Assembly (NCBI GenBank): GCA_963922205.1
Contig: CAWUHX010000061.1
Coordinates: 767,597-831,596, forward strand
Length of the DNA stretch: 64,000 nucleotides
From: Romanomermis culicivorax
Taxonomy: Eukaryota; Nematoda; Enoplea; Mermithida; Mermithidae
Reading direction: 5' to 3'
Position numbers and translations under genes: made by a program. The notes beneath the pieces were generated by a model, which was given only the letters and a program-made list of their open reading frames with translations, was not told where the DNA came from and ran no database searches. How positions within the stretch are numbered: position 1 is the first letter of the stretch; every line of letters starts with the position of its first letter. Below, piece by piece: positions 13,820 through 33,168 of this stretch.

Positions 13820-16369
13820 ATGACTCTAGTTCGAGAATCGTTGGCAAATCCAGCAATGGGTGATACCAACGTTGCTGCCATATATAAGGAGGTTAATGGA
13901 ACAATCGAATTTGATGGCAGTTCATCTTTTGTTCAATCTGCATTTTCAAATCTTACTAACCAGCAACTTTTGCCAGTGAGCACATTGAAAATTTTTCAAT
14001 CATCGGGATACATAGTCAGCGGTTTGTCTGCTGTTATTGCGAGTCTATTGATTATATTGCTAATTGCCACTAATAGGTCGTTACATACCAAAGATTTTTA
14101 TATATTGGCTGGTTTGGCAGGTAAATACTGATTACGAATCTGAAGTTTAACTCAAAAAATGCTGATGAAACACTTGAATCATGTTTCAGGAAGTGATTTA
14201 ATACGCGGCTACGGATACTTTCACGGTGGCATTGTACGCATCCTGTTTGCATTGCATGGACAGGAAAACGTGAAAGTAACGCCTCTCAGTTGCATGCTGC
14301 AGATTTATCAAACCTTTATGATTTTTGGTCAAAAAGCTTCTCCATTGGTGGTCCTGTTTTTGTCCATCGACCGACTATTGGCCGTTGTATTATTTCAACA
14401 GTATAAACACTTCGGGTTGTTATACGCAGTGGCTCTGGTGGCAATAGCATACTTTATCAGTGCGATAATAACAGTTTTAGCCTGGATAGCAGCCGTTTGC
14501 TGGATGCCCACAGGGTTGATGGTCGCCCAGACTTGCAAAACAGAGTCGGTGACACCGAATTGGTTCTTCTGTTTGGAGAGTGGAATGAGGTGAGTTTGAA
14601 AAGAGGTCAATCACTTGATAACTTCTTTCTATCATGTTTGAATTGTGATTTCTCTTTTAAACTTGATGTCTTCCAACGGTCGTATCCCTATCCCTCGAAC
14701 GTCCCCTTTTCTCGAAAGTACAGATTCTTCGAAGGTTTCGATTCCTCGAAAGTCTCGATTCCTCGAAAAATGGATAAAATTCCTGATTTCTCAAAACATG
14801 CTTTATTGCATCAAGACATTGCTTTCCCGATTCCTCGAAAAGAAGATAAAATTTGTAATTCATTGAACATTGGTGCATCACAAATCTCTGTTCATCGAAA
14901 GTGCATATACAAACAGATCGATTTTCTTGAAACGTATGTAAATTTGGTCGTAAATCCTATAATTTCAAAATAACCATATCTGATGATATGAAGACACGGC
15001 TTAGGCTTTGGCTTAGGCTTAGGCTTAGGCATAGGCATAGGCTTAGGCTTAGGCTTAGGCTTAGGCTTAGGCTTAGGCTTAGGCTTAGGCCTAGGCTTAG
15101 GCTTAGGCTTAAAATGGTAAATTTAAACCTGCGCATTTATCATTTTCGAGAAAACGGGATTTTTTCAAAAAAAAATTTTCGAGGATTGGAACTTTCGCTA
15201 AAACGCGACTTTGTAGTAAAATCTTAATCACTATTCGAAGAATCGGGACTCTCGAGGAATTGGGATGGGACTTTCGGTGAATCGGGACGTTCGAGGAATA
15301 TGGACATTCGATGAATCGACACAGCAGTAATTGTGATGCAGTTTAAATTATAGTGTATGAAATAGCCCCAAGCGAAATGAGTAACATTAAAAAAGTACTT
15401 CCCTGTGAAGCTTATTTACGCTAAAATTTGCATAAAAGTAGTGTATAATGGTAGGTACACATCAAAAAATACGACTGGAACAACATACGGGAAATTCGAT
15501 AGAGCCTACCGAGATCAAAAAAATATACGTCAGATGTTCATGAGCAGATTTAGTGTCGTTCCCAATATACAGCTGACCCGACTTGGCTGAGATTCAGGCT
15601 CATACATTTCGAAGTGGGAAACCGATGACATGAACAATATTATAATTCTCAGAAAGACCTTTCGATTGAATGTATTTACGGGATCAGGTATTTATGGGAT
15701 CAGGCGTAAGCAGACACACCATTAATGAGATAATTTATGCAAATATGAGTTTAAACAACATCATCTGAGACGAACGACTAGTGTAAAATTATTTAGTCCG
15801 CATGGGGCTATCAACCGTACTATTGCGTGAATGACGCCAGGATTTTCACTAGAAAGTATTTCCTCCATAGAAAAGTTGATTTTATCCTGAATGTTTGGCC
15901 TTTCTATTTTACAATTCATCCCGTAAGTCATAAAAATCTACTTTCTAGATTCTTTCCGGGCTTTATATGTTGCTTCGTATACATCTACGCTTTATCGATA
16001 GTGAAATCAAGATCAGCCACAATCACAAAAGGTATGCCAGAAAACGACCGCAGGAAACAATCCCAATTGACGAAAAACGTGGCTATCATAATGATCATCG
16101 AATTTCTTTTCACTACTCTGCCATTCGGCTATTCGTTTATCAGTTTTGCTGGACACTACACTCAGTCAGAATTTTTCAATACGATCTCACCGTTTTCATG
16201 GTCTTTATCGCTATTTGGCGCCGCTTGTAATTTTTTCTTGTACGCATTCAAGTATCCAAAATTCCGTCGAGCATTGGAGAAACAAATTTTGAGGAAAAAT
16301 GACGAACAATTGAGGAACATTCCGAATAAAACTGTGTTTGTCGTGCATACTTCCAAAACTAGAACTTGA
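13820..16369 (+). CDS. Nematode serpentine chemoreceptor-type GPCR, three exons
   Basis: Three exons join in frame: 13820-14120, 14190-14589 and 15949-16369, giving 373 codons. Introns are 69 bp (GTAAAT...TTTCAG) and 1359 bp (GTGAGT...TTCTAG), with matching phases. The product has about 55 extracellular N-terminal residues, then seven hydrophobic segments. TM1 is around IVSGLSAVIASLLIILLIA. TM3 ends in LSIDRLLAV, the nematode equivalent of the DRY motif. TM4 runs from LLYAVALVAIAYF. TM5 starts at FFPGFICCF. TM6 contains VAIIMIIEFLF. TM7 ends CNFFLYAFKYPKFR. This layout fits the srsx-like serpentine families, which act as sensory or peptide receptors in the plasma membrane; the ligand is not predictable. 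The second intron carries the telomere-bearing foldback element. A possible poly(A) signal lies at 16571. Confidence 0.85.
14689..15300. mobile_element. Foldback element with internal telomeric repeats, inside receptor intron 2
   Basis: The outer ends are inverted: TATCCCTCGAACGTCCCC at 14689-14706 against CGGGACGTTCGAGGAATA at 15283-15300 (16 of 18 pair). Both arms contain diverged repeats of a GATTCCTCGAAAGTC-type unit (14707-14840 on the left, its complement 15230-15300 on the right). The telomeric hexamer array sits between the arms. There is no coding capacity. It is read as a non-autonomous foldback or hairpin element rather than as unique intron sequence. Confidence 0.6.
15001..15108 (+). 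repeat. Interstitial telomeric repeat, (TTAGGC)18
   Basis: Eighteen hexamers in register: fourteen perfect TTAGGC, and four variants (TTTGGC, ATAGGC twice, CTAGGC). TTAGGC is the telomere repeat of most nematodes. The array is internal to an intron, so it is not a chromosome end. The variants show it has aged since it arose. Confidence 0.95.
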
Positions 16370-19084: not shown

Positions 19085-19088
19085 TATT
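19085..19088 (+). repeat. Target-site duplication TATT, left copy
   Basis: TATT immediately precedes the 5' LTR and recurs at 33165-33168 immediately after the 3' LTR. A 4-bp duplication fits Ty3/gypsy integrases. Confidence 0.8.
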
Positions 19089-19570
19089 TGTTGAGGTGGT
19101 CTCAGGTGCACGTGTTCAGCTTCCGGCGTCGGTGCGCAGGCGGTTGGACACGGCGAAAAGTGGCCAAAAAGAATGATATATTTGCATAGGTTTATGCTGC
19201 CACTGTTTCGCGTTTTTGGTGTCTTTTTATTAGTTGTTAAAAAAGATACGTTTTATGGAGCGTCACCGCCATCGTCTTATTTATAATATTTTTGTATATT
19301 ATTGTATTATTTGGCGTCGCCCATTAGCTACCCAATACACATTGAACCCGTAAGTGTATTGTTTTGTGAGCGTAGTGGAAGGAGTCTATAAGAATAGGAG
19401 TGGAGACTTGGGTAGGAGCTCCTGAGGTACGTGCCAAGGTGTTCTGCCTGAGGTTTAGTGAAAGTTCTGGCGAGTATCTGGTGAAACGTCTGGGAGAGTT
19501 TGGTGTTTGTTGTTGTTGTTAGCCTGTGGTCAGAACTGTTGCTTTATTGTGACCCCACAGCAGCCTAACA
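19089..19570 (+). repeat. 5' long terminal repeat
   Basis: 482 bp starting TGTTGAGGTGG and ending GCCTAACA, with a full-length partner at 32686. A TATAAGA motif at 19387, conserved in the other LTR at 32981, is a reasonable U3 TATA box. The block starting GAGACTTGGGTAGGAGCTCC just after it is strictly conserved and probably begins R. Confidence 0.95.
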
Positions 19571-19572
19571 AG

Positions 19573-19590
19573 TGGTGGACTCTTAACGCC
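19573..19590 (+). promoter_or_regulatory. Primer-binding site
   Basis: TGGTGGACTCTTAACGCC starts 2 nt after the 5' LTR. The leading TGG is complementary to a tRNA CCA tail, as expected for a minus-strand primer site. The matching tRNA was not identified by eye. Confidence 0.6.
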
Positions 19591-19678
19591 TCTCACGACG
19601 GATAACCGGAGAACCACCAGAAAAATAACTAAACCTCCTGGGTTTTATTTACAGGCACATACCGGAAAAATTAAGAAG

Positions 19679-20092
19679 ATGAGTATTCTGGTAGGAAAAA
19701 TGTTGAGGACTCCTCCTAGGTCACATGAACCTAGTGTTTCGAATCTGGACTCTGCTGAAGAACACGCAGCGGTAGAAAAGGTTCAAGCACAGGCGCCTGA
19801 GACTGAAGGAAGGAGAGAGAGTAGAAATGCCGAAGTGGCAAAAATGGAAGAGGAGTTGAGGAAGAGTAGTTTTGAGATGGCTAGGTTAGCCGAGATTGAA
19901 ACTACGGTAAGTGGTAGTGTCAGAGGTCAGCAGACCTTTGAGAGAGAGAGACCGATGTCGCCCTCGAAGTTGGTCCATCCGATGGCCGAAACGCTGGAGG
20001 AGATTAGACGGAAATCGAAACCGGCGTGGAGGTCAAACATGGTGGATATGAATTACGACGAGTATTACGAGGACGTGCCGGCCGATTTATAG
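19679..20092 (+). CDS. Retrotransposon Gag, N-terminal segment (137 aa, ends at in-frame stop)
   Basis: The ATG at 19679 is the first in the leader after the primer-binding site. The product is charged, with a Glu/Arg-rich, probably coiled-coil segment in its middle, and ends with acidic residues (DEYYEDV) before TAG at 20090. It is in the same frame as the long gag-pol ORF that follows. A TGA at 20111 is the second stop, after which the frame is open to 26329. It is best read as the amino end of Gag separated by two stop codons, either by decay of this copy or by a read-through or splicing arrangement. Confidence 0.7.
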   Translation: MSILVGKMLRTPPRSHEPSVSNLDSAEEHAAVEKVQAQAPETEGRRESRNAEVAKMEEELRKSSFEMARLAEIETTVSGSVRGQQTFERERPMSPSKLVHPMAETLEEIRRKSKPAWRSNMVDMNYDEYYEDVPADL

Positions 20093-20113
20093 GATGATAA
20101 ATATTCGAGATGA

Positions 20114-23100
20114 TATGAGCCCGAAATTACGAATTGGAGTCGACGAGAGGATCCAAGGGATCGAGTCGATCCCAAGGATTTACGATTTAACGCGCTGGAG
20201 AAAAAGGTCGAATTATTGATCAAAGTTATCGAAAGCGCGCAAGTCAAGGAAAAGGAAACGGAGGACGATCAACGGAAGAAGATAGGTGAGTCTTCTTACC
20301 TTGAGAATAGAGTTGAGAGAGTTGGTGAACCTAAGAGAGAGGTTCATTCAGAGGTTTATATAAGGTCTCAAGAGGATAGAGACAAATATTCGGCCAGAGA
20401 TAGAGGTTGGACTGAGGAGCCGCAGAGTTCGAGGAATGCTGAACAAGCACAATCGAATGCCTACGGTTACTCAGAGAATAGGAGGTCTAGGGAAAGGAAG
20501 GTGACTATTTGCGACGAATCGTCCCAGGGAGAGGATAGGTTTTCTCGTCCTACTCCTTGGAGAGATACCGCAAATAGAGCTGACCTTAGCCCTGAGAGGA
20601 GGAGAAAGAGGAGGTCAAAGAGTAGAAAGAGATCTCGTAGGTCAAGAGCTAGGAGTAGACATTACTCAGATAGTGATAATAGCAGTTCATCTACGTCGAA
20701 CTCTAGCTCAAGTGTTGAAGTTGATGTGAGAGATGTGGTAAAGGCCTTGAAACATAGACCTTTACATGATAGTATAAAGCCGACGGAGGCTTTGAAATTT
20801 TTTACTGATCTGGAAAGTGAATTTCTGGAGAATACGGCTGATAAGGTGAAGAAGGAGTGTTTGAGAAGGTTGTCTCAAAATACGGCAAGGAGGATAGCGA
20901 GAACATCCTCAAGTTATACAGAAGCGCGGAGAAATATTTTAAAGTATCTCGCGCCGACTTATGATTTGACGATGCTCAAGAGGGAGCTATTCAATATGAA
21001 ACAGGAGGAAGGCGAGTCAGCCTTAGAGTTTTTAAAAAGGTTGAGTAATCATGTGGATCTGGTCTATGCAGATCAGAGTGATCAAGTAAGGCAAGAGAAT
21101 ATTATTAATGCCTTCATTTATAAGAGTAGTCCGTTGTATCAGACGGAGTTGCAGGATGTATTGCCATCGATGAAAACATGGCAAGACCTTGCATACGCCG
21201 TAACTCAGATTGATAAGAAGTATAAGAATGTGTTTACTACTTTTGGAGCCAAGGATAAACCGATTGTAGTGAATCAAGTTGTAGCGGAGGAGATGTGCCC
21301 GGAAATTGCTTTTGTAGGGAATGCTCCGTATGGAAGTACTAAAAAGTATAACCAGACGAAGTCAAGACCACAAAATCAGTTGCAAAAGGCAGTGGAAGAG
21401 GAGAGAAGTGAGGAGAATGCTGAAGAGATGCAACATGGTCTGTCGCCTCGTGATGTCAAAAAGTCTAACGAGGAACAGGCCAAGGAGTCTTTTTTAGCTA
21501 TTCTCTCAAAGGAGTGGCTACAATTGGTTCAGAAAGTGGATAAATTACAGGTTACTCAGAATGAAGCTTTAAAAGAGTTGACTACTGTGAAGACTGCGTC
21601 TGCTGAAAAGCAGAAGCAGTTGAAGCAGCAGAGACCCTACTGCATATATCATAAGAATAATACTCATGCTACAGAGGAGTGTAAAACATTAGCATACCGG
21701 CGTCAGCAACAGCAACGCGGTGGATTTAACCGTGGCATGTCTAATCAGTATTATGGTGGTGATAGGAATGCTTCGTTTAGAGGAAGTTTTAGAGGTAGAG
21801 GTGGACCTCAGTTTGGATTTAGAGGAAGAGGAAGAGGTGCCTATTATGTAGGATTCCCCGAAGAAGATCAAATGTACGGGTATGACCCAGAGTTTGAGAG
21901 ATACAGGGAATTCTGCAGACTTAGGGAGCAAGGCATCCAGTTGCAGAGGCAGCCTCAGTTGATGCTACCTGCATCAACTAGTCAACCGGCTATTCAGGCT
22001 AGTACCGTCCAGGATCAGTCTGGATCATTTGTTTCGAACCAGTCGCAACCTAGTTCGCATAACGTAATGGTGACAAGCGGTACGGATGTGGATGATGAAA
22101 GTGATCAGAGTAGAAACAAATCTTCTAGTTTGGTTCTCGGAAGTATTATTCACCTGGATAAGGTGACACCTCTAGAGAAAGTGAAAGAAAGAGATTTGGC
22201 TCATGTGAAGTATGGAAGGAAAGCAACGGACATAGAGAGAAGGTTGTTGGAAAATTATCCGAAAACGGTTCCATTCTATATAAATGTGGTTATTAAAGAA
22301 ACGGCTACCAGAGCTTTCATCGATACAGGAGCTCAGTGTACAGTCATGTCTTCTAAGCTCCTGAAAAGGGCATTAGATGTTGATTATACAGTGTACCCTC
22401 GTATTCTTAAAGTGACTGTAGCTGATGGAAAAATTGTGCATGCCTATGGGTATGTACCAGTTTGTATGAAGACTGAATTCGGAAGTTTTCCAGTCAATGC
22501 TATAGTGTTGCCAGATGCAGGTGAGGACCTGATCTTGGGCACAGATTTTTTAGCACACCCAGATTTAGGTGTGGTGATTGATTTTAAAAGGAATGCCATG
22601 ACGATACAAGGCATTGAGAGAAAGATTGACGTAGTTCAAGTTCCTTCTGTAACTACTGTGCAAACGGTAATGGAAGAAGTAATTAAAGTCAGTGTGGCGT
22701 CGACTGATTGCATAAATCAAATTGTTTATCCAAAAGTTTGTCTACTAAAGACAACTGTTGCAATTGTTGCATGTAGTAAAACCTACATTCCATATGGAAC
22801 AGATGTTTTGATGAAGGCAAAACTTTGGGATCAACATGGAGATGCCACGTTGAACGGAATTATTGTCGAATCAAAGGATTCTGAAAGGAAGTTCAGAATG
22901 GAGAAAGCGGTTGTAGACGGATCACAAGAGGAGTTTGTAGTACTAATCTCCAATACCACAGGTTCTGGTTGTCGGTTTGAGAGAGATCAAATCATTGGCT
23001 ATACAGAATCTATGCTTATTGAAGATGATGATACGTACAAGAAGGTGAAGGAAATGAAAAAGATAAAGGAGGAAAAGGAATATCAGACCTGTATGGTAAA

Positions 23101-26100
23101 GGAAGGAATGCCTGCATTATCAAAATCTGATTCTGTAGAGTTCTATACTTCACTATGCAAGATGATATCGAAGGCGAAAATTGCGGAAGAGAAGAAAACG
23201 GAAGCTATAGAGTCTTTGTTGAGGTACAGAGATGTCTTTAGCTTGCCTGGTGATCCGGCTACTACAACCCCAGCTCTGACGTGCAAGATAGATACAGGAG
23301 ATGCAAGACCTGTAGCAAAGAGATATTACAGAGCTTCAATTAATAGTTGGCCAGGAGTAAGGCGACATATAAAGGAGATGTTGGATCAAGGAGTGATCGA
23401 GCCCTCGAAGTCACCGTGGGCTGCACCCTTGTTCCTAGTTGGAAAGAAAGATGGAACTAGGAGACCAGTAGTTGATTTTAGAGGTATAAACGAAGTGACC
23501 AAGGATGATAAATATCCCATCCCGAGAATGGATGACTATTTAGATTGCCTTGGAAGAGCGAAGTTTTATACGACTCTAGATTTGAAGTCGGGATATTGGC
23601 AGGTCCCGATGGAGGAGGAGAGCAAGGAGAAAACGGCTTTTATATGCCAAGAGGGCTTGTTTCAGTTTAAAGTGATGCCGTTTGGATTGAAGAATGCACC
23701 TGCTGAATTCCAAAGGATGATGGAGAGAATCCTTGGGGATTTGGTATGGAAAATTTGCCTAGTGTACATAGATGATATTATCATCTTCTCGAATACGTTC
23801 GAGGAACACTTAGAGAATTTGAAAATGGTGCTAGAAGTGTTGAGGAAGGCGAAGTTGACTCTTAAGCTGGAGAAATGTGAATTTCTTCCCGAGAAGGTGC
23901 ACTTTTTAGGGCACATCTTGGATGCGAACGGAATTTCTCCGGATCCTAAGAAGGTCAAGGCGATAACGGAATTTCCATTCCCGGATTCTGTTAAGAAAAT
24001 GCAAAGATTCCTAGGTATGCTACAATGGTGTAAGAAATTTATACCAGACCTAGCAGCACTAGCTGAACCCTTGTACAAATTAACAGGCAAGAAGGGAACA
24101 TGGAATGTGACGGAGTTGCATTACACAACTTTTGAGAAGCTCAAAGTAGCATTGACCTCAGTACCTTTCTTAAGACATCCAATTCTAGTTGGATCTGCGC
24201 GATTCATTCTTCAAACGGATGCCAGTGGAATTGCATTGGGAGCAGTGTTATGTCAAGAGACTGACTCGGAACGTTGGGTGATAGCCTACAATAGTCGGAT
24301 ATTGCGGGCAGAGGAAAGGAAATGGTGCGCCACCGAAAGGGAATGCTTAGCTGTGGTTTACGGCCTTAAAATTTATAAACATTATCTTTTGGGCCAAAAG
24401 GTCAGGATTCAAACTGACCACAAACCATTATTATCAATGAGGGTCAACACACAGACTAATGACAAACTCAAGAGGTGGTACGCATTCATTTGCCAGTTTA
24501 ATCACAAGTTGGAGTACGTGCCTGGCAGACAGAATGCCATGGCTGATTTCCTCTCCAGAAAAGAGGAACCGGATGAGCAGAAAGAGAAGTTGCCACCAAA
24601 ATGGGAGCTTATCTTTCAGAAAGAAGGAGTAAAATCTCTTGCTGAAGATGAAGTCCTTAACCAAAACCACAAAGTTTTAGTGAAACAACTTCGGGAACTC
24701 AGAGGAGATGAAGTGGATGAGGCTGTAGGAGTCTTCACTCCGGTGAAGATGGCCACAGCTTCAGTGGCTTCAAAGTATGGTGTTAGTGATGAGACTCGAC
24801 TTAATATTTCTCCAGAATTTGATAATTATCGAACACCTGAGAAATATGAAATTGAGGCGGTAGTCACTAGACAAATGGCAAAAAACTTGCAGCAGGAGGA
24901 AAAAGGACATCCTCCTGGGCAAGCAAAACCTGTAGAAGAGGTGAAGAGAATTTTTGAACCGAAGGAGAAGGAGTTTGAAGAAGCCCCAGAAATTGAAGAT
25001 GGTAGACCGAAAGGGCTTATCTCAAACGCCTTGATGTCAAAGTTGCAAGGAAAGGATAAAGATTTAAAAGTGATCTTCGAGAAACTAGGTGCTAATAGTG
25101 GCACTAAGTCTCAAAGTAACTTTTATATCGATCAAGGGATACTATATAGAGAGACTTTTGGCGAGGCAGAGGATCAAGTTGTTGTGCCCTCTGTTCTCAA
25201 AAAAGTTGTCCTACATCAGTATCATGGAGCAGTGATGATGACGCATCAAGGGTTTAAGAGAACCCTTGCTATTATTAAAAAGCGGTTCTGGTGGCCGAAC
25301 ATCGAGAAGGATGTTCGGAGCTGGATCAGCTTTTGTCCGATATGTCAAATTGCGACTCCAGGAAAGGCTACAATACCGCCATTAAATCCATTTATTCCTA
25401 GAGGACCATTTGACATAGTCTCTGTGGATATTGTGGGAATATCTCCCATGAGCGAGAAAAGACCGTATGTGATAGTATTTCAAGATTACTTTACAAAATG
25501 GGTGGAAGCAGAAATGATCCCGGATCAATCTGCTGTAACCATTGTGGACAGTTTTCTTCGAAATATTGTGTTCAGGCATGGAACCCCGGTGAAATTGTTG
25601 AGTGATAACGGTTCATGCTTTACAGCTGATTTGATGACGTCAGTTTGTAAATTATTGGAGTGTCAGAAGATTTTCACAACTGCCTACCATCCACAAGGAA
25701 ATGGAATGGTTGAAAGGTTTAACCAAACCTTGATCAAGCAGTTGCGAAAGGTTGCTATAGAGGATTCAGATAAGTGGGACAGATATTTGCAATCTGTTGT
25801 TTTTGCGTATAATGCCACACCTCATACCTCAACGAGATGTTCTCCATTTGCCTTATTGAGAGGTCATGAGGCTAATTTTGGCATTAGTATTGGTGTTGCA
25901 AGAAACATAGTTCTGCCAATGAACTATGAGGCTTATAAGCATATACTAACAGAAAGTTTAGTAGAAACTTATGAAGTCATTTCAGAGAATATCAGGAAGG
26001 CTGCGGAGAGCAGTAAAAAGTTTTTTGACCGTAAAGCAAAAGCTCATGATTATTCCGTCAATGATTGGGTTTTGCTGAAAGTCGATAAACAGAAAAAACT

Positions 26101-26329
26101 GGGTCTGCCGTGGCAAGGACCGTATGTTGTTACTGATAATAGGAGATTATCAGAGAATGTGCTTGAAATCGCTCACTGGAGAGAGCCGCTGAAAAAGCAG
26201 GTGGTATCCGTGAGCAGGTTAAAGCACTTTCGCTACGAGACCGGCAGATGGCTGCAGTCTAACGAAGTGTCATCTAAGGACACGCAGTTTACTGTAGATT
26301 CGAAAATTAGTAATTATAAACTGCTGTAG
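20114..26329 (+). CDS. Retrotransposon Gag-Pol polyprotein: capsid, zinc knuckle, protease, RT, RNase H, integrase
   Basis: Open from the TGA at 20111 to 26329. The first in-frame ATG is only at about 20972, inside the capsid region, so it cannot start independently as a full Gag. In order: an Arg/Ser-rich segment (about 20595-20700), a capsid-like helical region (about 20733-21240), a CX2HX4HX4C zinc knuckle (21641-21682), an RGG-rich patch (about 21716-21850), aspartic protease with DTGA at 22322, reverse transcriptase with YIDD at 23765-23776, RNase H with its first Asp at 24218, and an integrase HHCC region (about 25214-25350). The integrase core has D, D, E at 25427, 25604 and 25712 with 35 residues between the last two. 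A WQGPY (GPY/F) module follows at 26111. All catalytic residues are present. It would make cytoplasmic particles, reverse transcribe the element RNA and integrate the DNA. Confidence 0.92.
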
Positions 26330-27617
26330 CACGTAGCGCTATTTTTCGCATGTGTGTGTGTGCGTGTGATTACCCCCCCCCCCATATTTTTTCGTCCCGA
26401 ATTTTGTAATTAGGTACAAATTGTAATTAGTTGTATTTATTTATGTATTTATCATGTATTTATTGTGTATTTTTTATTTTCCCTCGCGTAAATCTTTAAA
26501 TTTTCAAAAATTCTTGGTAAAAAAAAACCACTCTTCGCAAAAAATCCAAATTCTTAAAATTTTTTCGCGGCTTAAATTTTAAATTTCCCCGAGTCCGAGT
26601 AATTTTTTCGGAGGAAATAGTTAGTTGTTGCCCCCCAATTCTGTGAATATTGGAAGAATTGGGAAACCACTGAAATTTTAGGGTGAAAATAGACAAAAAG
26701 TAGCGAAAGCGGAAAATTTGTCGATTTTTCAGCTCTTAAAAAGTTTTATCAAAAAATTTTCAAAAATTGATAGCGCCGAATTCCAAGAATTCGAGAATGA
26801 AGCGGAAGAAATGTCCTGGCCCCCCAATGGATGCCGGACAAAACAATACCTGGTCACGGACCCCCACGTGACCTACGGTCAGCCGCAGGTGCGGCAAAAC
26901 AATCAGTATTTTTTAGTCGATGGTAAGCGACCTAAGTTTTTAAACTTAGTTAATCTAAACATTATTTGGGCAAAGCAGGATGTTATAGCCCACGGGTGTC
27001 TAGATGAAGGCCTAGACAATTGTAAAAGTTTAGTGGGAACAAATTTGTTCTGTCAACTTGAAAAAGTGTGGCAAAGCTGCCCGTAGCGCAAAATTTGGAC
27101 TTTTTGCGAAACTACATCATTCCTCTACACACATAGCGAGTTGAATAAATTCGTCTATGTGATGGGGAAGAAGTGGAGCGTAGCAACTAGTCGACTAGGG
27201 GTAGATAATTTCAAAATTATTTAAATTTTCAAATTCCATCTTAATTTAATTTTCTACGAATTTCCACATTTTGGGTAAATTAGTAAATATATTTTAAATT
27301 TCTTCTTGGAAATTCTTAATTTATTAGTTGGATAGGCCGTTTTGGGCGTTGGATTGAGACGGCATGCAGTCGAATGATGGAAGACGCAGGTGGTCTGTGC
27401 GTGTACTCCCGTATAAGGTAGAAGTCGGGGCCGCACTTGTGTTTAACTATCTGCCAACACTAACCCAATATATGTTTGGTACCTTATTGTCCCCTGCTTG
27501 CAATTTCTTTTTTTTTCTTTTTCCTTTTTGTGCTTACTATCTGTGGTGAAGGTAGAATTTAACCGATGTTTGTCCGCTTTGGGAAAAACTTTCATTAAAA
27601 AGTTGTAAACATTTTGT
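26330..27617 (+). other. Spacer between pol and ORF3, with splice-acceptor-like sites
   Basis: A TG repeat followed by eleven Cs (26351-26383) opens the spacer. GTCGATTTTTCAG ending at 26732 is a strong nematode 3' splice site. It is followed by a frame open to 27086 (about 115 residues, Cys-containing, no ATG near its start) that resembles nothing recognised. An AATAAA lies at 27144. A second acceptor-like GAATTTTTTAG ends at 27629, just inside the annotated start of ORF3. The layout suggests ORF3 is expressed from a spliced or trans-spliced subgenomic RNA, but nothing here proves it. Confidence 0.5.
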
Positions 27618-30600
27618 ATGAATTTTTTAGACTACAATGTCAAGCGCATTGTCAGAGTCGGCAAATTGGAATGCTGGTTCGCCACGAATTTCGGGAGATT
27701 TCCGTTGGAATTGACGGAACCGAAAATGGTCGAAATAGGTAAGGTGGCCGAAATGATCGAAACCTTGAAGGTGAGTAGGTTTCGAGGACAGCCAATTATC
27801 GGGTTTGATACAGAGAAAGTTACTCAAGAGTATGTGAGTAAGGTTTTCGCGACTTCTGGGGTTGATAACCCAAAAGGGAAGGAGTTTGCGAGAGTCATTA
27901 GCTTCTCGACGGTAACTGGAGACACCTTTGTTGTAGATACTACGACAATCATGCCGAAGGAATGGACGCTCATTCATGAGCTCTTAGATTCGGACATGCT
28001 TCTCGTTGGATACAACTTGGTTACAGATCTGGTCGCCATCTGGAATGTTAATGGCGCAGGTAGAAAGCACCAAGATGTTGATCTAACACCGGAGATCAAG
28101 CATAGAGTAACGTCTTCGTATGGCCGTTATTATGACGTAGCCAAGGTAGGAGACCAGTTGAACGGAAGATTTTTGGCAATGTCCAGGAAGTTGGGACTTT
28201 GCCCGGAGACCTTTAAGCTGAAAGGGTTGTTCACGGAGCTGTATCTGGCGGATATCGGTTATTTCCAAATCGATTTCCGTCAGAGAGCGCAACCTGAACG
28301 ATTCTGTAGGCACACGTTGACGCAGTTTGAAATACGGTATTCAGCACTGGACGCCTACTACTCATTGTTGGTTTTCCTAGCGTTTTTCCACTATGAGTTA
28401 GCTATGGAAGTCGAGGTCGGATTCCAGTATTTTCCGCATGATTTGATGAAAGCGGATCAAATTCAGATAATGGCTTTTAGGTTGTATAGGTTTTTTAACA
28501 TGATACATGGTGAAAATTTTCCGCAGACTTTTTGCGGAAGTCCAGAAGTAGAGGAGCCGCAGTCATCGGCTATTTATCACGTGATGAGACAGGAGGTGTA
28601 TGCCCGTATGGCTGCCCAAATGGATACCTCATTTGGAGGCTATACGGAGTACAGCTTCCCTCATTACGAGTCAAATCCGAAGAGAGGGAGAGAAGTAAGT
28701 ATACCTAAAGGTATTCATCCTGATTATACCATCAAGGAAAAAAGTAAGAATGTGGACGGTAACGATACGGTAAGTGAGGATGAAGAGTTTGAAGAAGCTT
28801 TGTCCGAAAAGCAGATTAGAACTCGAATTACGAAGAAGGTGGTAGATATGGTGAATCAAGGGAAGAGTTTCAGTAGACTTGATGAACCAGTATCTATGGT
28901 TTTATACGAGAATTTCCTAAGGTATAGGAAAGAAACGAAACAGTTGTTGGAGATAACATCTCTGGAAGTTGATTACCACGAGTATGAACCAGTCAGAGTT
29001 TCGAATGGTAAAGACTCGTATGTAAGACAACACTGGAGTATGGATATCGCTCCTTATTCTGAAATATTGATTGAGGACAATTTTAAGAATTTGGAGTCAG
29101 TGTGTAACAAAGTTCCGCTCACGTTTCATTTATTTTGGCCAGCTTGTAGAGAGGAAGCGGAGGAGTACCTTACCTCTCTCCTTGACCATAACTATTTGAG
29201 ATCCTTTAGCCCTGAGGGAAAGGAACAACTCTTGAAGATGTTGTGGAGAGGAGATAGGTATGGTCAGTACTTATCATTTTTGAATAGTCTTCCAGTAACG
29301 GAGGTGCATACGCCAACAAAGGGCGATGTGATTACATGTTGGGGAAATCGTTTCGGATTTTTGCCGATCCGATTTTGGCCCAAGACAAAATCATGGGAGC
29401 AAAGACCGGAAGATAAGAGGAAGCATTTGGCGGAGTGTCCACAGTACAAAGATAATCCGTACTGCTATCAGAGGTTTTACTTCCACCAGATAGCTGTCCG
29501 AGTTCCAGGTTTGCGATACCCAATAGATATGAGTGAGGACGCAACGAAGGAGAATCAGAAGAAGAGCGTGTTAGCGTATCAACCGGAATACGTTCCAGGT
29601 TATGAGCCGCCATTTTTCGAGCCGATATTGCCGTCCGATGCTCCAGGTTTCACAATTACGCATATTGGCGATAAGGTTGTAGTGACGCCGACAGGTAAGC
29701 AGCCAGCAGTGCCGGTTACAGGCACTGAGGTAAGCACAACGGTGAGTCAGCAATCTGGAGTTGATATGAGTAGTATGGATCAGGTGCAGGGGATGCAGGC
29801 TGAGCCTGTTGCGGCGAAAGCACAGCAACAAGCGATACCTGCAGACCTCAACACCCCCATAGACTTGAATCAGGTAGGAGACGATTTAGAAGTGGACAAG
29901 GAGGTCACTGTTGAATCGTTGATACAGCCTGATCAAGAAACACAGGTAACCTCTTTACTAGATCAGACAGAAAGTTTACTTTCTGGAATGGATGTCAGGG
30001 CAGAGCAAATGTTGGATGAAAGCAATCTGATAACGATTGCTGCAAGTCCAACAATAGAAGAAATTGAAGCAAGGCTCAGGGAGCGAGCTGAAAAGGAAAT
30101 TGAAAGGCAGAAAGAGATTTTCGCTAAACAGCTTGCGGAGCAAAAAGCGAGATTAGATCAGCAGCAGAAGCAGCTGGAGCAGGTATTGGCTGGTTTTACG
30201 GCGCAGCCGACGCCTCTGGCAGCGCCTACAGTCGTGCAAGCTCCGGCCAAGCCGCCTACTGCTTATCATATCCCGAAATTGCCGGTGCAGCCTGCTAGTA
30301 CGCAGGTCATCCAACCTGCGGTCAGCAAGGTTACGCCGACAGTTCAAGTAGCGCCCAGAGATCCAAGTATGGACGGTGGTATACCAGGTATGTATACTGC
30401 CGAAGAGGTTAGAAAGTTCAGAGCGGAAGGTCGTACGGATGATCAGATTAAAAGATTAGGAAGGAGGAAGTTAGCCCGAAGGGCCAATAGGGCTAAGAGG
30501 AGAGATGAAGAAGATGTTATTGAAATTAGTGATGGTGAAGGAGAACAGACAGGGAGTTCTACGTCTGTGGACTTGAAGTTTGCAGGATCTACAACTTTAT

Positions 30601-31946
30601 TGACGGATTCAACCAAGTCCAAGACTGGAACTACGCCGACGAGCCTGATGCCTGGAACCAAAAGTTCTACGAGTCAAGTGCAGTCGACGGTTGCTTCGGC
30701 TAAAGTACCTAGTAAATCGTCTGCATCTCAGGTAAGTGCAACGACGAAAAGTACTTTGGCTAAGCCCGTGTCTAAAGTGGATAAGACTTCTCAGCAGAAC
30801 CAGAGCAGTTCCGCAGGGAAAAAAGTTGTTTCTAAACCCTCTACGTCGGAACCGACTAAATCGGTCAAGAGAAGTAGAGATAAGGAAGTAACTTTGGAGT
30901 ACCTGAGTTCTGTTTTGAGAGACTACTGGGATGTCCATAAGAAGTTTCCCTTGGTGAAGGGAAGGATAGATTTTTCGACACCGGAGGTGATCGAATTCTT
31001 TGCTCAGGATATGCCAGATGATAATAGGAATCAAATCATCTGGGCATTGGTGAATAATGGAGTAGAGGAGCTTTACGAGAACTATGGGGATCACTTTGAT
31101 GTTCAGGGTGGTTTCCTGTATGATCATGTAAACGTTCCTGAGCCCATTTGGGAGTATATTTGGCTCAAGTTCATGCCAAATTGGTTTCATCATTTTGATG
31201 CGGAAATAGTAATGGCAGCCGTGAGATACTTATGTACCATGGTGTTGCTAAAGTTAGAACAGCAGCAGTTGGGCCCGAGACACATTGGTGCAGTGGATGC
31301 ACGGGCCAAGTCATTTGTGACGGAGAGGTATTATTCTATCTACCTGCGGGGAGAAGGTAGTACTGCATTCAGGGAAGCGTATGCCAACCGAATGCAGGAA
31401 CACCAACAAACTGCAGTGGATATGGCAGCGAAAAGAAGGTTGTCAGACATGGTTCAGAAATTTTCTGGTAAATTCCAGAAGGCCGAGGATGAGGAGGGGC
31501 AACCCTTCAAGATTCCCATTTTAACGGAGAGACAACCTAGAGATACATCCAGGTCCAGGAGCCAGCACTCGCGACAATCGTCTCACTCGCAGGGTCGGCA
31601 CCAGCCTGGAGTATTCAAATTACCGTATGCAAATCAACAGAGTCAAGGAAGGTCCAGTACCTCAGCTTCTGGAGTATCTTCCGTAAGTTCCACTCAGGGC
31701 TCGTACCAGAGGGGAACTGGAGGGGGATATGGCCGAGGCTGGGGTCAGGGACAGGGTCAAGGAAGACCCTTCAAAATGGTTAATCCGCAACCGTATAGAG
31801 GACAGGCGATGGGCGGACCCCCTCGTGCGGCCCAACCTCGAGGAGTTTTTGGGGGATTCCTCAGGGGTCGTGGAGCTCGGGGTGGTCCCTACCCTCGCCG
31901 TGGTAGCTTCCAATACGGCGGTTATGGTGGCGGCGGGCAACAATAA
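27618..31946 (+). CDS. Retrotransposon ORF3: DEDDy 3'-5' exonuclease-domain protein with SIM and RGG tail
   Basis: 1442 codons in the env position of the LTR element. Residues about 55-260 carry the DEDDy signature: Exo I D64-T-E66 in IGFDTE, Exo II N133 and D137 in GYNLVTDL, and Exo III Y241 and D245 in RYSALDAYYSLL. These are the five residues expected for an active RNase D/WRN/MUT-7-type nuclease. Residues about 280-700 are unrecognised. Next come a coiled coil (about 812-862), Pro/Gln-rich linkers, a basic patch, VIEISD followed by acidic residues at 967-972 (a SUMO-interaction-like motif), and Ser/Thr-rich sequence. A helical domain of unknown type (about 1090-1260) and a Gly/Arg/Gln-rich RGG tail (about 1365-1442) close the protein. 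There is no signal peptide, transmembrane segment or fusion peptide, so it is not an envelope protein. If splicing uses the acceptor at 27629, translation would start upstream or at a later Met (about residue 37), leaving the nuclease intact. It probably acts on RNA or DNA ends during the element's cycle or against host small RNAs; both are inference. Confidence 0.85.
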   Translation: MNFLDYNVKRIVRVGKLECWFATNFGRFPLELTEPKMVEIGKVAEMIETLKVSRFRGQPIIGFDTEKVTQEYVSKVFATSGVDNPKGKEFARVISFSTVTGDTFVVDTTTIMPKEWTLIHELLDSDMLLVGYNLVTDLVAIWNVNGAGRKHQDVDLTPEIKHRVTSSYGRYYDVAKVGDQLNGRFLAMSRKLGLCPETFKLKGLFTELYLADIGYFQIDFRQRAQPERFCRHTLTQFEIRYSALDAYYSLLVFLAFFHYELAMEVEVGFQYFPHDLMKADQIQIMAFRLYRFFNMIHGENFPQTFCGSPEVEEPQSSAIYHVMRQEVYARMAAQMDTSFGGYTEYSFPHYESNPKRGREVSIPKGIHPDYTIKEKSKNVDGNDTVSEDEEFEEALSEKQIRTRITKKVVDMVNQGKSFSRLDEPVSMVLYENFLRYRKETKQLLEITSLEVDYHEYEPVRVSNGKDSYVRQHWSMDIAPYSEILIEDNFKNLESVCNKVPLTFHLFWPACREEAEEYLTSLLDHNYLRSFSPEGKEQLLKMLWRGDRYGQYLSFLNSLPVTEVHTPTKGDVITCWGNRFGFLPIRFWPKTKSWEQRPEDKRKHLAECPQYKDNPYCYQRFYFHQIAVRVPGLRYPIDMSEDATKENQKKSVLAYQPEYVPGYEPPFFEPILPSDAPGFTITHIGDKVVVTPTGKQPAVPVTGTEVSTTVSQQSGVDMSSMDQVQGMQAEPVAAKAQQQAIPADLNTPIDLNQVGDDLEVDKEVTVESLIQPDQETQVTSLLDQTESLLSGMDVRAEQMLDESNLITIAASPTIEEIEARLRERAEKEIERQKEIFAKQLAEQKARLDQQQKQLEQVLAGFTAQPTPLAAPTVVQAPAKPPTAYHIPKLPVQPASTQVIQPAVSKVTPTVQVAPRDPSMDGGIPGMYTAEEVRKFRAEGRTDDQIKRLGRRKLARRANRAKRRDEEDVIEISDGEGEQTGSSTSVDLKFAGSTTLLTDSTKSKTGTTPTSLMPGTKSSTSQVQSTVASAKVPSKSSASQVSATTKSTLAKPVSKVDKTSQQNQSSSAGKKVVSKPSTSEPTKSVKRSRDKEVTLEYLSSVLRDYWDVHKKFPLVKGRIDFSTPEVIEFFAQDMPDDNRNQIIWALVNNGVEELYENYGDHFDVQGGFLYDHVNVPEPIWEYIWLKFMPNWFHHFDAEIVMAAVRYLCTMVLLKLEQQQLGPRHIGAVDARAKSFVTERYYSIYLRGEGSTAFREAYANRMQEHQQTAVDMAAKRRLSDMVQKFSGKFQKAEDEEGQPFKIPILTERQPRDTSRSRSQHSRQSSHSQGRHQPGVFKLPYANQQSQGRSSTSASGVSSVSSTQGSYQRGTGGGYGRGWGQGQGQGRPFKMVNPQPYRGQAMGGPPRAAQPRGVFGGFLRGRGARGGPYPRRGSFQYGGYGGGGQQ

Positions 31947-32685
31947 TTTCATATAGCCGCATACTTTTTGGACCAAAATTCGTTATTTCGTACAAATTTT
32001 ATTTCAAAAAATACAAAATACAAAAACACAAATAAAATACAAAATACAAAAAAATATATATTATCTCGTTTTATTGTTGCTTTAAATTTTAAATTTTTTC
32101 TCGTTTCCGGTGCCCAAAAGTTGCCCGGCGAAATTCGTCTTTCCGTCCATCTTATTTCGGGCGTGTACATAGCCCTCGTATTTTTCTCGTTTAATTTCAG
32201 GGCCTGAAAAAGATGAAGACGTGAAAATTTTATTTGCATTTATAAAATTTATTTCGTAAATTTGAAGTATTTTATAGAAAATCTTTTTTACTGAGTAGAT
32301 TTGTATTGGACGGAGCGACGTGGCGAGCGGCCGACCATAGAGGAAGCGCACCTGGGGTACCTCATCACCGAAGCTGTAAAAACCAGTACACGGGAGAAGA
32401 GGAACGGCGACGCCCCGGATCTAGGCACAGATCGACGTCAAAGTCCAGGCCGAACTACGTTCGTGATCGTTTCCGGTAGCCTGAAAAGGAGTGCCCTGCC
32501 GAATGGATTGGTCAAGGTCGCCGTCACCTGAAGGACCTGGTAGGGGCTGGATCACATTTTGGAGGGGGTAGCCCCAAAAATTTGTTTTCCGAGGGGAAAA
32601 CTGTTATGCAGTCGGGGCCTCAGTATGAGACTCAGGCTGCAGAAAGGTTTTCACCTCCCGTTGGTTGGTTTTGAGGGCTGAGGGA
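31947..32685 (+). other. Untranslated tail of the LTR element with purine tracts
   Basis: 739 bp between the ORF3 stop and the 3' LTR. It opens with A-rich sequence including AATAAA at about 32031. A second G-rich tract (TTTTGGAGGGGGTAGCCCC, about 32551-32569) lies 120 bp before the LTR. No long open frame is present. Confidence 0.6.
32670..32685 (+). promoter_or_regulatory. Polypurine tract
   Basis: TTGAGGGCTGAGGGA directly abuts the first TG of the 3' LTR. This is the expected position of the plus-strand primer, although the tract is interrupted by C and T. Confidence 0.6.
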
Positions 32686-33164
32686 TGTTGAGGTGGTCTC
32701 AGGTGCACGTGTTCAGCTTCCGGCGTCGGTGCGCAGGCGGTTGGACGCGGCGAAAAGTGGCGAAAAAAGAATGATATATTTGCATAGGTTTATGCTGCCA
32801 CTGTTTCGCGTTTTTGGTGTCTTTTTGTCATTGTTAAAAAAGATACGTTTTATGGAGCGACGCCGCCATCGCCTTTTATACAATATTTTGTTTATTATTG
32901 TTTATTTGGCGTCGCCATTAGCTACCCAATACACATTGAACCCGTAAGTGTATTGTTTTGTGAGCGTAGAGGTTGGAGTTTATAAGAGTAGGATTGGAGA
33001 CTTGGGTAGGAGCTCCTGAGGTACGTGCCAAGGTGTTCTGCCTGAGGTTTAGTGAAAGTTCTGGCGAGTATCTGGTGAAACGTCTGGGAGAGTTTTGTGG
33101 TTGTTGTTGTTGTTAGCCTGTGGTCAGAACTGTTGCATAGTGTTGACCCCACAGTTGCCTAACA
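32686..33164 (+). repeat. 3' long terminal repeat
   Basis: 479 bp, TGTTGAGG...GCCTAACA, aligning end to end with 19089-19570. Differences are about thirty substitutions and small indels, clustered around the T-rich middle (32875-32910) and near the end. The TATAAGA motif is kept at 32981. Confidence 0.95.
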
Positions 33165-33168
33165 TATT
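33165..33168 (+). repeat. Target-site duplication TATT, right copy
   Basis: Matches TATT at 19085-19088. Confidence 0.8.

What the first reader, a model, noticed from the sequence alone, without database searches (positions are those of the whole stretch)
27618..31946. LTR retrotransposon encoding a DEDDy 3'-5' exonuclease in the env position
Directly visible: an intact 1442-codon frame lies between integrase and the 3' LTR, inside one TATT-flanked element. Its first 260 residues contain D64/E66, N133/D137 and Y241/D245 in the order and spacing of the RNase D/WRN/MUT-7 exonuclease family. Ty3/gypsy elements are known for env-like third ORFs; I do not know of one with a DEDDy nuclease. Nematodes use MUT-7, a nuclease of this fold, in transposon silencing, and some RNA viruses carry a related DEDDh nuclease that removes double-stranded RNA. 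A captured host-type exonuclease that blunts small-RNA defence, or trims cDNA or RNA ends, is therefore a reasonable inference. Against a chance match: all five signature residues are present and the long frame is preserved.
Basis: partly seen in the sequence, partly recalled or inferred. Interest (0 to 1): 0.88.

Follow-up and report, generated by a model that had tools for sequence, protein, structure and literature searches.

The report
Worm retrotransposon carrying its own exonuclease
A family of jumping genes in a roundworm that parasitises mosquito larvae carries, behind its usual copying genes, a large protein that begins with a likely RNA/DNA-trimming enzyme, and related jumping genes in the same worm have kept that enzyme after losing the gene that copies them.

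Summary
Observation confirmed; interpretation partly supported. Window 19089-33164 is a 14-kb Ty3/gypsy-type LTR element (TSD TATT) of the mermithid Romanomermis culicivorax. ORF3 (27618-31946, 1442 codons) lies between integrase and 3' LTR; its first ~270 residues carry D64/E66, D137 and Y241/D245 of DEDDy 3'-5' exonucleases. Alone it matches PF01612 weakly (E 0.0039, below the curated cut-off) and AlphaFold2 failed; relatives settle it: a sister family (ORF3 ~30% identical) keeps all five residues, and a second pol lineage has ~600-aa ORF3s matching PF01612 at up to E 1.7e-13. ORF3 was found behind 91 of 127 integrase places of this family (36 unresolved), with dN/dS 0.086. The start ATG is not conserved; a splice acceptor is. 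Precedent exists: bdelloid rotifer LTR elements with a DEDDy ORF3 (2017). Additions: a nematode, several ORF3 types on two pol lineages, a viral fusion glycoprotein in one of them, and non-autonomous elements without protease or RT (at least one very recent) whose nuclease stays constrained (dN/dS 0.025) while their still open pol remnant is relaxed (0.62). Most likely role: a nuclease acting on RNA 3' ends for the element, possibly against host siRNA silencing (inference, ~0.4).

The parts
19085..19088 (.). target-site duplication TATT, left copy
19089..19570 (+). 5' LTR, 482 bp, TG...CA
19573..19590 (+). putative primer-binding site starting TGG, two bases after the LTR (tRNA not identified)
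   Evidence: inference
19679..20092 (+). gag N-terminal frame; ends at an in-frame stop in this copy, with a second stop at 20111-20113; 5 of 5 other copies are open at that place
19682..19683 (+). speculative splice donor ATGA|GTATTC right after the gag AUG; the only one of 13 donor-like motifs in 19301-20600 from which an upstream ATG reads in frame into ORF3
   Evidence: present in 6 of 6 copies
20114..26329 (+). gag-pol frame, 2071 codons plus stop
   Evidence: Pfam
22280..22558 (+). retroviral-type aspartic protease (PF13975)
23441..23920 (+). reverse transcriptase (PF00078, E 6.1e-39)
24197..24499 (+). RNase H (PF17917)
25184..25693 (+). integrase zinc-binding and core domains (PF17921, PF00665)
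26330..27617 (+). 1.3-kb stretch without a long frame between pol and ORF3
27622..27632 (+). conserved 3' splice acceptor TTTTTTAG|AC; intron end 27630
   Evidence: 8 of 8 copies of this family, 7 of 7 of the sister family
27618..31946 (+). ORF3, 1442 codons plus stop
27738..28427 (+). DEDDy 3'-5' exonuclease-like domain, residues ~41-270: D64 codon at 27807, E66 27813, D137 28026, Y241 28338, D245 28350
28818..29567 (+). second conserved region, residues 401-650, no known relative found
31665..31943 (+). Gly/Arg/Gln-rich C-terminal tail (8 of the 12 RG pairs of ORF3), possible RNA binding
   Evidence: function inferred
32686..33164 (+). 3' LTR, 479 bp
33165..33168 (.). target-site duplication TATT, right copy

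Best explanation
The element is a multi-copy Ty3/gypsy-type LTR retrotransposon of Romanomermis culicivorax whose third gene encodes a large protein beginning with a DEDDy (RNase D / WRN / MUT-7 type) 3'-5' exonuclease domain that keeps its metal-binding residues and is under strong purifying selection. It is probably made from a spliced RNA through a conserved acceptor just upstream of the domain (inferred from conservation), carries a second conserved region without known relatives and an RG-rich tail, and has no clear membrane segment, so it is not an envelope protein. It belongs to a pool of retroelement-borne DEDDy ORF3s found on two pol lineages in this genome and comparable to the one described in bdelloid rotifers. 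Shown: gene, position, residues, copy number, selection, retention by RT-less relatives. Inferred: that it is an active nuclease; that it works on RNA 3' ends; that it benefits the very element that encodes it (RT-less elements must borrow RT but keep their own ORF3). Most likely target: the siRNA/dsRNA silencing pathway proposed for clade I nematodes (about 0.4); next, 3'-end processing of the element's own RNA or cDNA (about 0.3). The confidence below is for the identity and anatomy, not the target.
For: PF01612 is the only Pfam family listed for residues 1-320 at E up to 10 (E 0.0039); NCBIfam's only match at E up to 0.1 is a 3'-5' exonuclease/polymerase model (E 0.0043, 15.4 bits, far below its full-length cut-off). 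Sister family: pol upstream on the same strand in 8 of 8 loci, D, E, D, Y, D kept in 8 of 8, PF01612 E 2e-4 to 3.2e-3. Second type: PF01612 E 2.2e-4 to 1.7e-13 in 8 scanned, 7 of 8 over the curated cut-off; with L044 added, WRN and MUT-7 are its best solved relatives (E 2.6e-6, 1.2e-4). Profile-profile, window+sister family vs second type+L044: E 1.5e-4 with catalytic residues in register; rerun score 41.7 vs maxima 28.2 and 28.6 in two sets of 200 column shuffles and 19.3 with the reversed alignment. The 19 invariant columns of an 8-row alignment of four ORF3 types include all five catalytic ones. dN/dS: exo 0.086, residues 401-650 0.083, 651-816 0.37. RT-less elements: pol remnant 0.62 vs exo 0.025 and ORF3 C-terminal part 0.106 in the same four copies; integrase 0.70 (11 copies) vs exo 0.065 (12 copies) in L009-L020. 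Chosen by integrase instead: the 14 closest places (88-100% to L031) all have an ORF3 place downstream. Host context, passages of PMC4323106: no piRNAs or 5'-triphosphate small RNAs in R. culicivorax; RdRP-Dicer siRNAs against transposons in Trichinella.
Against: The window protein alone stays below Pfam's curated cut-off (17.5 vs 23.6 bits). AlphaFold2 gave pLDDT 36.6 alone and 36.3 with four distant rows. The window+sister profile has no significant PDB match and ranks a photosystem protein (E 0.31) above EXD2 (0.42). Against the second type the window alone scores 21.4 and the sister family alone 26.1, both inside the shuffled range. The Foldseek list of the poor model (top 15 of 275 all EXD2; none at E <= 0.001, TM 0.26) is not counted. 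The sister family and L009-L040 were chosen by PF01612 match and the window copies by exo-protein score, which biases exo dN down (not the regions outside those queries). In the RT-less copies exo dS exceeds pol dS in 6 of 6 pairs, so ORF3 exchange by recombination may contribute; and their pol remnant is relaxed but not wrecked: 13 of the 14 closest integrase places have no stop, against 11 of 14 for their ORF3 matches. In the second pol lineage only 16 of 62 RT places examined have a detected DEDDy ORF3 downstream. Second-type ORF3s reach 1.66 and 1.78 in 19-residue hydropathy. No expression or activity data.
Confidence: 0.88

Rival explanations
1. Replication accessory: the exonuclease trims 3' ends of the element's genomic RNA, primer tRNA or cDNA during reverse transcription and integration; its selection reflects replication, not defence.
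For: Conserved catalytic residues. The rotifer authors name 3'-end processing of element RNA as a possible role (passages of PMC5408684).
Against: RT-less elements that must borrow RT in trans still keep their own ORF3, which suits a function needed before or outside the particle; many RT-bearing copies of the same lineage have no detected DEDDy ORF3.
Confidence: 0.3
2. RNA-binding or export factor: the DEDD fold is used to bind RNA (as in Maelstrom or EXD1), and the spliced env-position product exports or packages genomic RNA, as CERV does in C. elegans Cer1.
For: Spliced env-position product implied by the conserved acceptor; RG-rich tail; CERV is a spliced product needed for gRNA export (PMC10309623, abstract and section 9); inactive DEDD relatives keep RNA binding (PMC5408684 passages).
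Against: The four acidic residues and the Tyr are kept in 8 of 8 window-family, 8 of 8 sister and 17 of 19 second-type loci and in L044, unlike inactive Maelstrom/EXD1; no sequence link to CERV was tested.
Confidence: 0.15
3. ORF3 in the RT-less elements is not selected there: frames look conserved because recombination with RT-bearing relatives keeps supplying intact ORF3 copies.
For: exo dS is higher than pol-remnant dS in 6 of 6 pairs; RT-bearing copies with an ORF3 of these types exist (14 of 85 ORF3 places examined have RT 3.0-3.35 kb upstream).
Against: The element in L031 is 7.5 kb with 616-bp LTRs without a mismatch, TSD GGTG and an intact ORF3; the whole element incl. pol remnant and ORF3 aligns in one piece at 93-94% between L031 and L029 or L033.
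Confidence: 0.25
4. Recent capture of a host exonuclease (MUT-7 or WRN) by this one element.
For: Best solved relatives of the ORF3 pool are WRN and MUT-7.
Against: ORF3 behind 91 of 127 integrase places, 36 unresolved, in a sister family with pol ~54% and ORF3 ~30% identical, and in a second pol lineage; alignment across types starts upstream of ExoI.
Confidence: 0.05

Closest known systems
DEDDy-type ORF3 of bdelloid rotifer LTR retrotransposons Juno and Vesta and of Athena Penelope-like elements (Rodriguez et al. 2017, PMC5408684; outline, abstract and passages seen)
   Same: LTR element with a third ORF behind pol encoding an RNase D-like DEDDy exonuclease; shared between unrelated retroelement lineages; patchy presence in a lineage.
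   Different: Here a nematode; ORF3 of the window is 1442 aa with further regions; D-E-D-D intact (the rotifer paper reports DEDD changed to DEED); RT-less elements that keep ORF3; fusion glycoprotein in the same lineage. Direct homology to rotifer ORF3s was not tested.
CERV of C. elegans Cer1 (PMC10309623; abstract, sections 6 and 9, passages seen)
   Same: Non-env protein from a spliced RNA of a nematode gypsy element; its C-terminal part was once taken for an env.
   Different: CERV has H, M and G (GTPase-like) domains; 0 occurrences of 'exonuclease' in the text.
PF01612 cellular DEDDy exonucleases: RNase D, WRN, MUT-7, EXD2, Rrp6
   Same: ExoI D-x-E, ExoII ...D, ExoIII Y-x3-D in order.
   Different: Carried by a retrotransposon, with a conserved stretch before ExoI and further C-terminal regions.
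DEDD exonucleases of RNA viruses (arenavirus NP, nidovirus ExoN; PMC7968707, listing only)
   Same: A virus carrying a 3'-5' exonuclease domain; in arenaviruses tied to suppression of innate immune signalling.
   Different: Those are DEDDh-type (recalled, not from a call) and in RNA viruses.

Membership tests
DEDDy 3'-5' exonuclease (PF01612) | four metal-binding acidic residues plus ExoIII Tyr in order | tested here: met
   8 of 8 window-family and 8 of 8 sister copies; 17 of 19 second-type loci and L044 (L012 and L013 are damaged)
DEDDy 3'-5' exonuclease (PF01612) | profile score above the curated cut-off | tested here: inconclusive
   window 17.5 bits vs 23.6: not met; sister family 0 of 8; second type 7 of 8 met
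DEDDy 3'-5' exonuclease (PF01612) | DnaQ/RNase D fold | tested here: inconclusive
   AlphaFold2 pLDDT 36.6 and 36.3
DEDDy 3'-5' exonuclease (PF01612) | nuclease activity | not testable with these tools
   needs protein
Ty3/gypsy LTR retrotransposon | LTRs, short TSD, PR-RT-RNaseH-IN order | tested here: met
Bdelloid-type DEDDy ORF3 | DEDDy ORF behind pol inside LTR boundaries | tested here: met
   precedent PMC5408684
Bdelloid-type DEDDy ORF3 | sequence descent from the rotifer ORF3 pool | not tested
   no rotifer sequence was fetched
Retroviral/errantiviral env | transmembrane segment or fusion-protein match | tested here: not met
   window ORF3: max 19-residue hydropathy 1.58; no env family among Pfam matches of its four pieces at E up to 10; signal peptide not tested
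CERV-like accessory protein | spliced env-position product | tested here: inconclusive
   acceptor conserved 8 of 8 and 7 of 7; no RNA data
Non-autonomous LTR element (RT-less group) | LTRs and TSD but no own RT | tested here: met
   8 of 12 fetched second-type loci have RNase H and integrase remains but no RT and, inside the element, no protease; LTRs in 5 of 5 of these scanned; L031 LTRs identical over 616 bp, TSD GGTG

The most novel reading that the evidence does not exclude
A retrotransposon lineage has discarded its protease and reverse transcriptase but keeps its exonuclease under near-complete constraint, which would make the nuclease a cis-acting weapon of the element itself, most simply against the host's RdRP-Dicer siRNAs, and more indispensable to it than RT.
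Probability: 0.35. Interest if true: 0.82.

Novelty: new variant of a known kind. Interest (0 to 1): 0.62.

Why it matters
It extends DEDDy ORF3s from bdelloid rotifers to a nematode, shows them to be constrained (the rotifer paper's discussion reports no significant departures from neutrality for its extra ORFs; its variation section covers env- and GDSL-like ones), and offers a natural experiment: elements that lost RT but not the nuclease. Clade I nematodes lack piRNAs and are proposed, from Trichinella, to silence transposons with RdRP-Dicer siRNAs, so a transposon-borne 3'-5' exonuclease makes the question whether animal retrotransposons encode silencing suppressors directly testable. UniRef holds such ORF3s as worm proteins, so they can be mistaken for host genes.

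Tried and rejected
Structure prediction: single sequence and with four distant UniRef rows both failed; the Foldseek run on the second model is told but not used. Protein searches with the window ORF3 found nothing; the second-type alignment found 8. Viral contigs: no relative. One-off capture: rejected. Env: rejected. ATG 27618 as conserved start: rejected. Second conserved region against solved structures: no match at E up to 1. C-terminal part of window ORF3 vs second type: no match. tRNA and Rfam scans of the window: nothing. The spliced-leader pattern did not complete; phylum and species rest on TTAGGC repeats (22,615 matches vs 5 in the control), UniRef relatives 8 of 8 R. culicivorax, one identical to L039 over 260 of its 262 residues, and assembly size and scaffold number equal to R. 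culicivorax v2 (359.1 Mb, 595).

The integrase-chosen control was unanswered and answered as places only (loci not cut), so dN/dS could not be redone on integrase-chosen copies. In one search two pol frames (L024, L025) were out of frame; one search replaces that row. In one search the ExoII site of the second type was misplaced; one search replaces it. In one search copies were trimmed at their first stop (L004 at residue 802, L008 at 584), so residues 651-816 rest on 21 of 28 pairs. In one search one of 55 integrase pairs fell below 30 codons.

Full report
WHAT IS THERE. The window belongs to a nematode genome of 359,112,060 bases in 595 contigs, the size and scaffold number given for the second assembly of Romanomermis culicivorax (passages of PMC10879605); TTAGGC repeats abound and a UniRef protein of that species is identical to locus L039 over 260 of 262 residues. 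At 19089-33164 lies one LTR element of 14.08 kb: LTRs of 482 and 479 bp, 95.2% identical, K2P 0.050, TSD TATT. [quoted passage not shown] After 1.3 kb without a long frame comes ORF3, 27618-31946, 1442 codons. The window copy is not intact: two in-frame stops lie between its gag N-terminal frame and the gag-pol frame; five of five other copies are open at that place.

THE DOMAIN. By itself the window protein gives only a weak profile match: PF01612 E 0.13 for the whole ORF, 0.0039 for residues 1-320, below the curated cut-off but the only Pfam family listed at E up to 10; NCBIfam's only match at E up to 0.1 is a 3'-5' exonuclease/polymerase model, E 0.0043, far below its cut-off; against solved structures the best of 177,635 sequences is EXD2 at E 1.1, aligned over ExoIII, with haem oxygenase second at 2.1. 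AlphaFold2 failed twice.

RELATIVES DECIDE IT. A PF01612 search of the genome gave 119 places; I fetched 20 regions. Eight (L021-L028) are a sister family: pol upstream on the same strand in 8 of 8, 53-55% identical to the window's in the five loci with one long match of 1700 residues or more, ORF3 about 30% identical. All eight keep D, E, D, Y, D; N133 is A there; none of the eight passes the PF01612 cut-off. The other twelve (L029-L040) carry ORF3s of a second type, 454 to 614 codons; PF01612 E-values of the eight scanned run from 2.2e-4 to 1.7e-13, and profiles find WRN and MUT-7 among solved structures. A further type, L044, found through a protein search, stands behind a complete gypsy pol. 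In an eight-row alignment of the four types 19 columns are invariant and all five catalytic positions are among them. The window+sister profile aligns to the second type plus L044 with E 1.5e-4, from a stretch upstream of ExoI through ExoIII, catalytic residues in register; rerun, the score is 41.7 against maxima of 28.2 and 28.6 in two sets of 200 column shuffles and 19.3 for the reversed alignment, while the window alone (21.4) and the sister family alone (26.1) are inside the shuffled range. Without the second type, the window+sister profile finds nothing significant among solved structures. In the second type 17 of 19 distinct loci keep all five residues.

COPIES AND SELECTION. The exo part of the window ORF3 has at least 126 places at 93% identity or more (a capped list). 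Of 127 integrase places (capped) 85 have a listed ORF3 place at 2199-2228 bp on the same strand; of the other 42, six were fetched and 6 of 6 hold ORF3; 36 are unresolved. Among eight copies dN/dS is 0.086 for residues 41-270, 0.083 for 401-650 (outside the search query), 0.37 for 651-816. Sister family: exo 0.161, pol frames 0.172.

EXPRESSION. The ATG at 27618 is in 3 of 8 window-family copies and 0 of 7 sister copies, but TTTTTTAG|AC is in all 15 (L023 not included). This points to a spliced RNA. Of 13 donor-like motifs in 19301-20600, one, right after the gag AUG, lets an upstream ATG read in frame into ORF3; it is present in 6 of 6 copies, but with 13 motifs tried this is weak evidence. 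CERV of Cer1 is made from a spliced RNA too (PMC10309623, abstract and section 9).

THE RT-LESS RELATIVES. In 8 of 12 fetched second-type loci RNase H and integrase remains are present but no RT and no protease inside the element; two (L039, L040) have RT; two (L035, L037) show no pol. These are mobile elements: direct LTR repeats about 6.9 kb apart in 5 of 5 of them scanned; L031 has 616-bp LTRs without a mismatch, TSD GGTG and an intact 608-codon ORF3. In L029, L031, L032, L033 the pol remnant has dN/dS 0.62 and the exo domain 0.025; the ORF3 C-terminal part, outside the PF01612 match, has 0.106. In L009-L020 exo is 0.065 (12 copies) and integrase 0.70 (11 copies). These copies were chosen by PF01612 match, which favours intact exo domains. 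A search by integrase remnant gives places only: the 14 closest (88-100% identical to L031) all have an ORF3 place downstream on the same strand, 11 of 14 without a stop in the match; but 13 of 14 integrase matches have no stop either, so the remnant frame is relaxed, not wrecked, and may still be translated. Exo dS is higher than pol dS in 6 of 6 pairs, so recombination from a selected ORF3 pool may share in the contrast.

NOT AN ENV SUBSTITUTE. The window ORF3 has no 19-residue window at or above 1.6 hydropathy (max 1.58; second-type L031 1.66, L044 1.78). In L044 and L039 a frame upstream of the protease holds a mononegavirus-type fusion glycoprotein (PF24664, E 7.6e-15 and 2.9e-9), while the DEDDy ORF sits behind integrase. 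In that lineage DEDDy ORF3 is patchy: found behind 16 of the first 62 of 142 RT places, 3 of 30 among the closest; candidate limits of the search may hide divergent ones.

MECHANISM. Shown: gene, residues, position, copy number, constraint, retention without RT. Inferred: activity and target. R. culicivorax showed no piRNAs and no 5'-triphosphate small RNAs, and in Trichinella RdRP-Dicer siRNAs are directed at transposons (passages of PMC4323106). A nuclease made and kept by an element that borrows RT is best explained by a role before packaging, at the RNA or silencing stage (0.4); 3'-end processing in replication (0.3) and RNA binding or export (0.15) are the rivals.

KNOWN OR NEW. Bdelloid rotifer LTR elements with DEDDy ORF3 and sharing of such ORFs between retroelement classes are published (PMC5408684, outline and passages). 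My literature searches (the listed part of each) showed no paper on such an ORF3 in nematodes; some searches listed 20 of 336, 28 and 26 papers. So this is a new variant of a known kind; the RT-less, nuclease-keeping elements are the part that would surprise a specialist.

Noticed in passing
L044:62-697 and L039:7576-8766: A Monjiviricetes/gB-like fusion glycoprotein (PF24664) upstream of the protease of a Ty3/gypsy-type element, in L044 in the same frame as pol; chuvirus glycoproteins are known from BEL-Pao elements of mosquitoes (PMC7642597 passages), the hosts of this worm.
   Followed up: partly
L029, L031, L032, L033: exo-domain dS exceeds pol-remnant dS in 6 of 6 pairs, as if ORF3 were exchanged between elements or older than the rest.
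   Followed up: partly
L026: One sister-family copy has raised dS in ORF3 residues 1-650 against the five others compared, a likely recombinant.
   Followed up: no
4324-9573: Single 1749-codon frame without a Pfam match above cut-off, with a Gly/Asp-rich stretch that looks RTX-like by eye.
   Followed up: no
14998-15111: Interstitial telomere-type array, 19 copies of GGCTTA.
   Followed up: no
UniRef P0001 and P0006: Retroelement ORF3s are listed in UniRef as R. culicivorax exonuclease-domain proteins; P0006 looks like a chimeric gene model joining an unrelated exonuclease to ORF3 pieces.
   Followed up: no
21641-21682: The gag zinc knuckle (residues 510-523 of the frame) reads C-x2-H-x4-H-x4-C instead of the usual C-x2-C-x4-H-x4-C (usual form recalled).
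   Followed up: no
G000 places C81:1173201, C167:26632, C150:377415, C60:736144: Further ORF3s 33-35% identical to that of L044 behind lineage-B RT places: probably another ORF3 type, not fetched.
   Followed up: no
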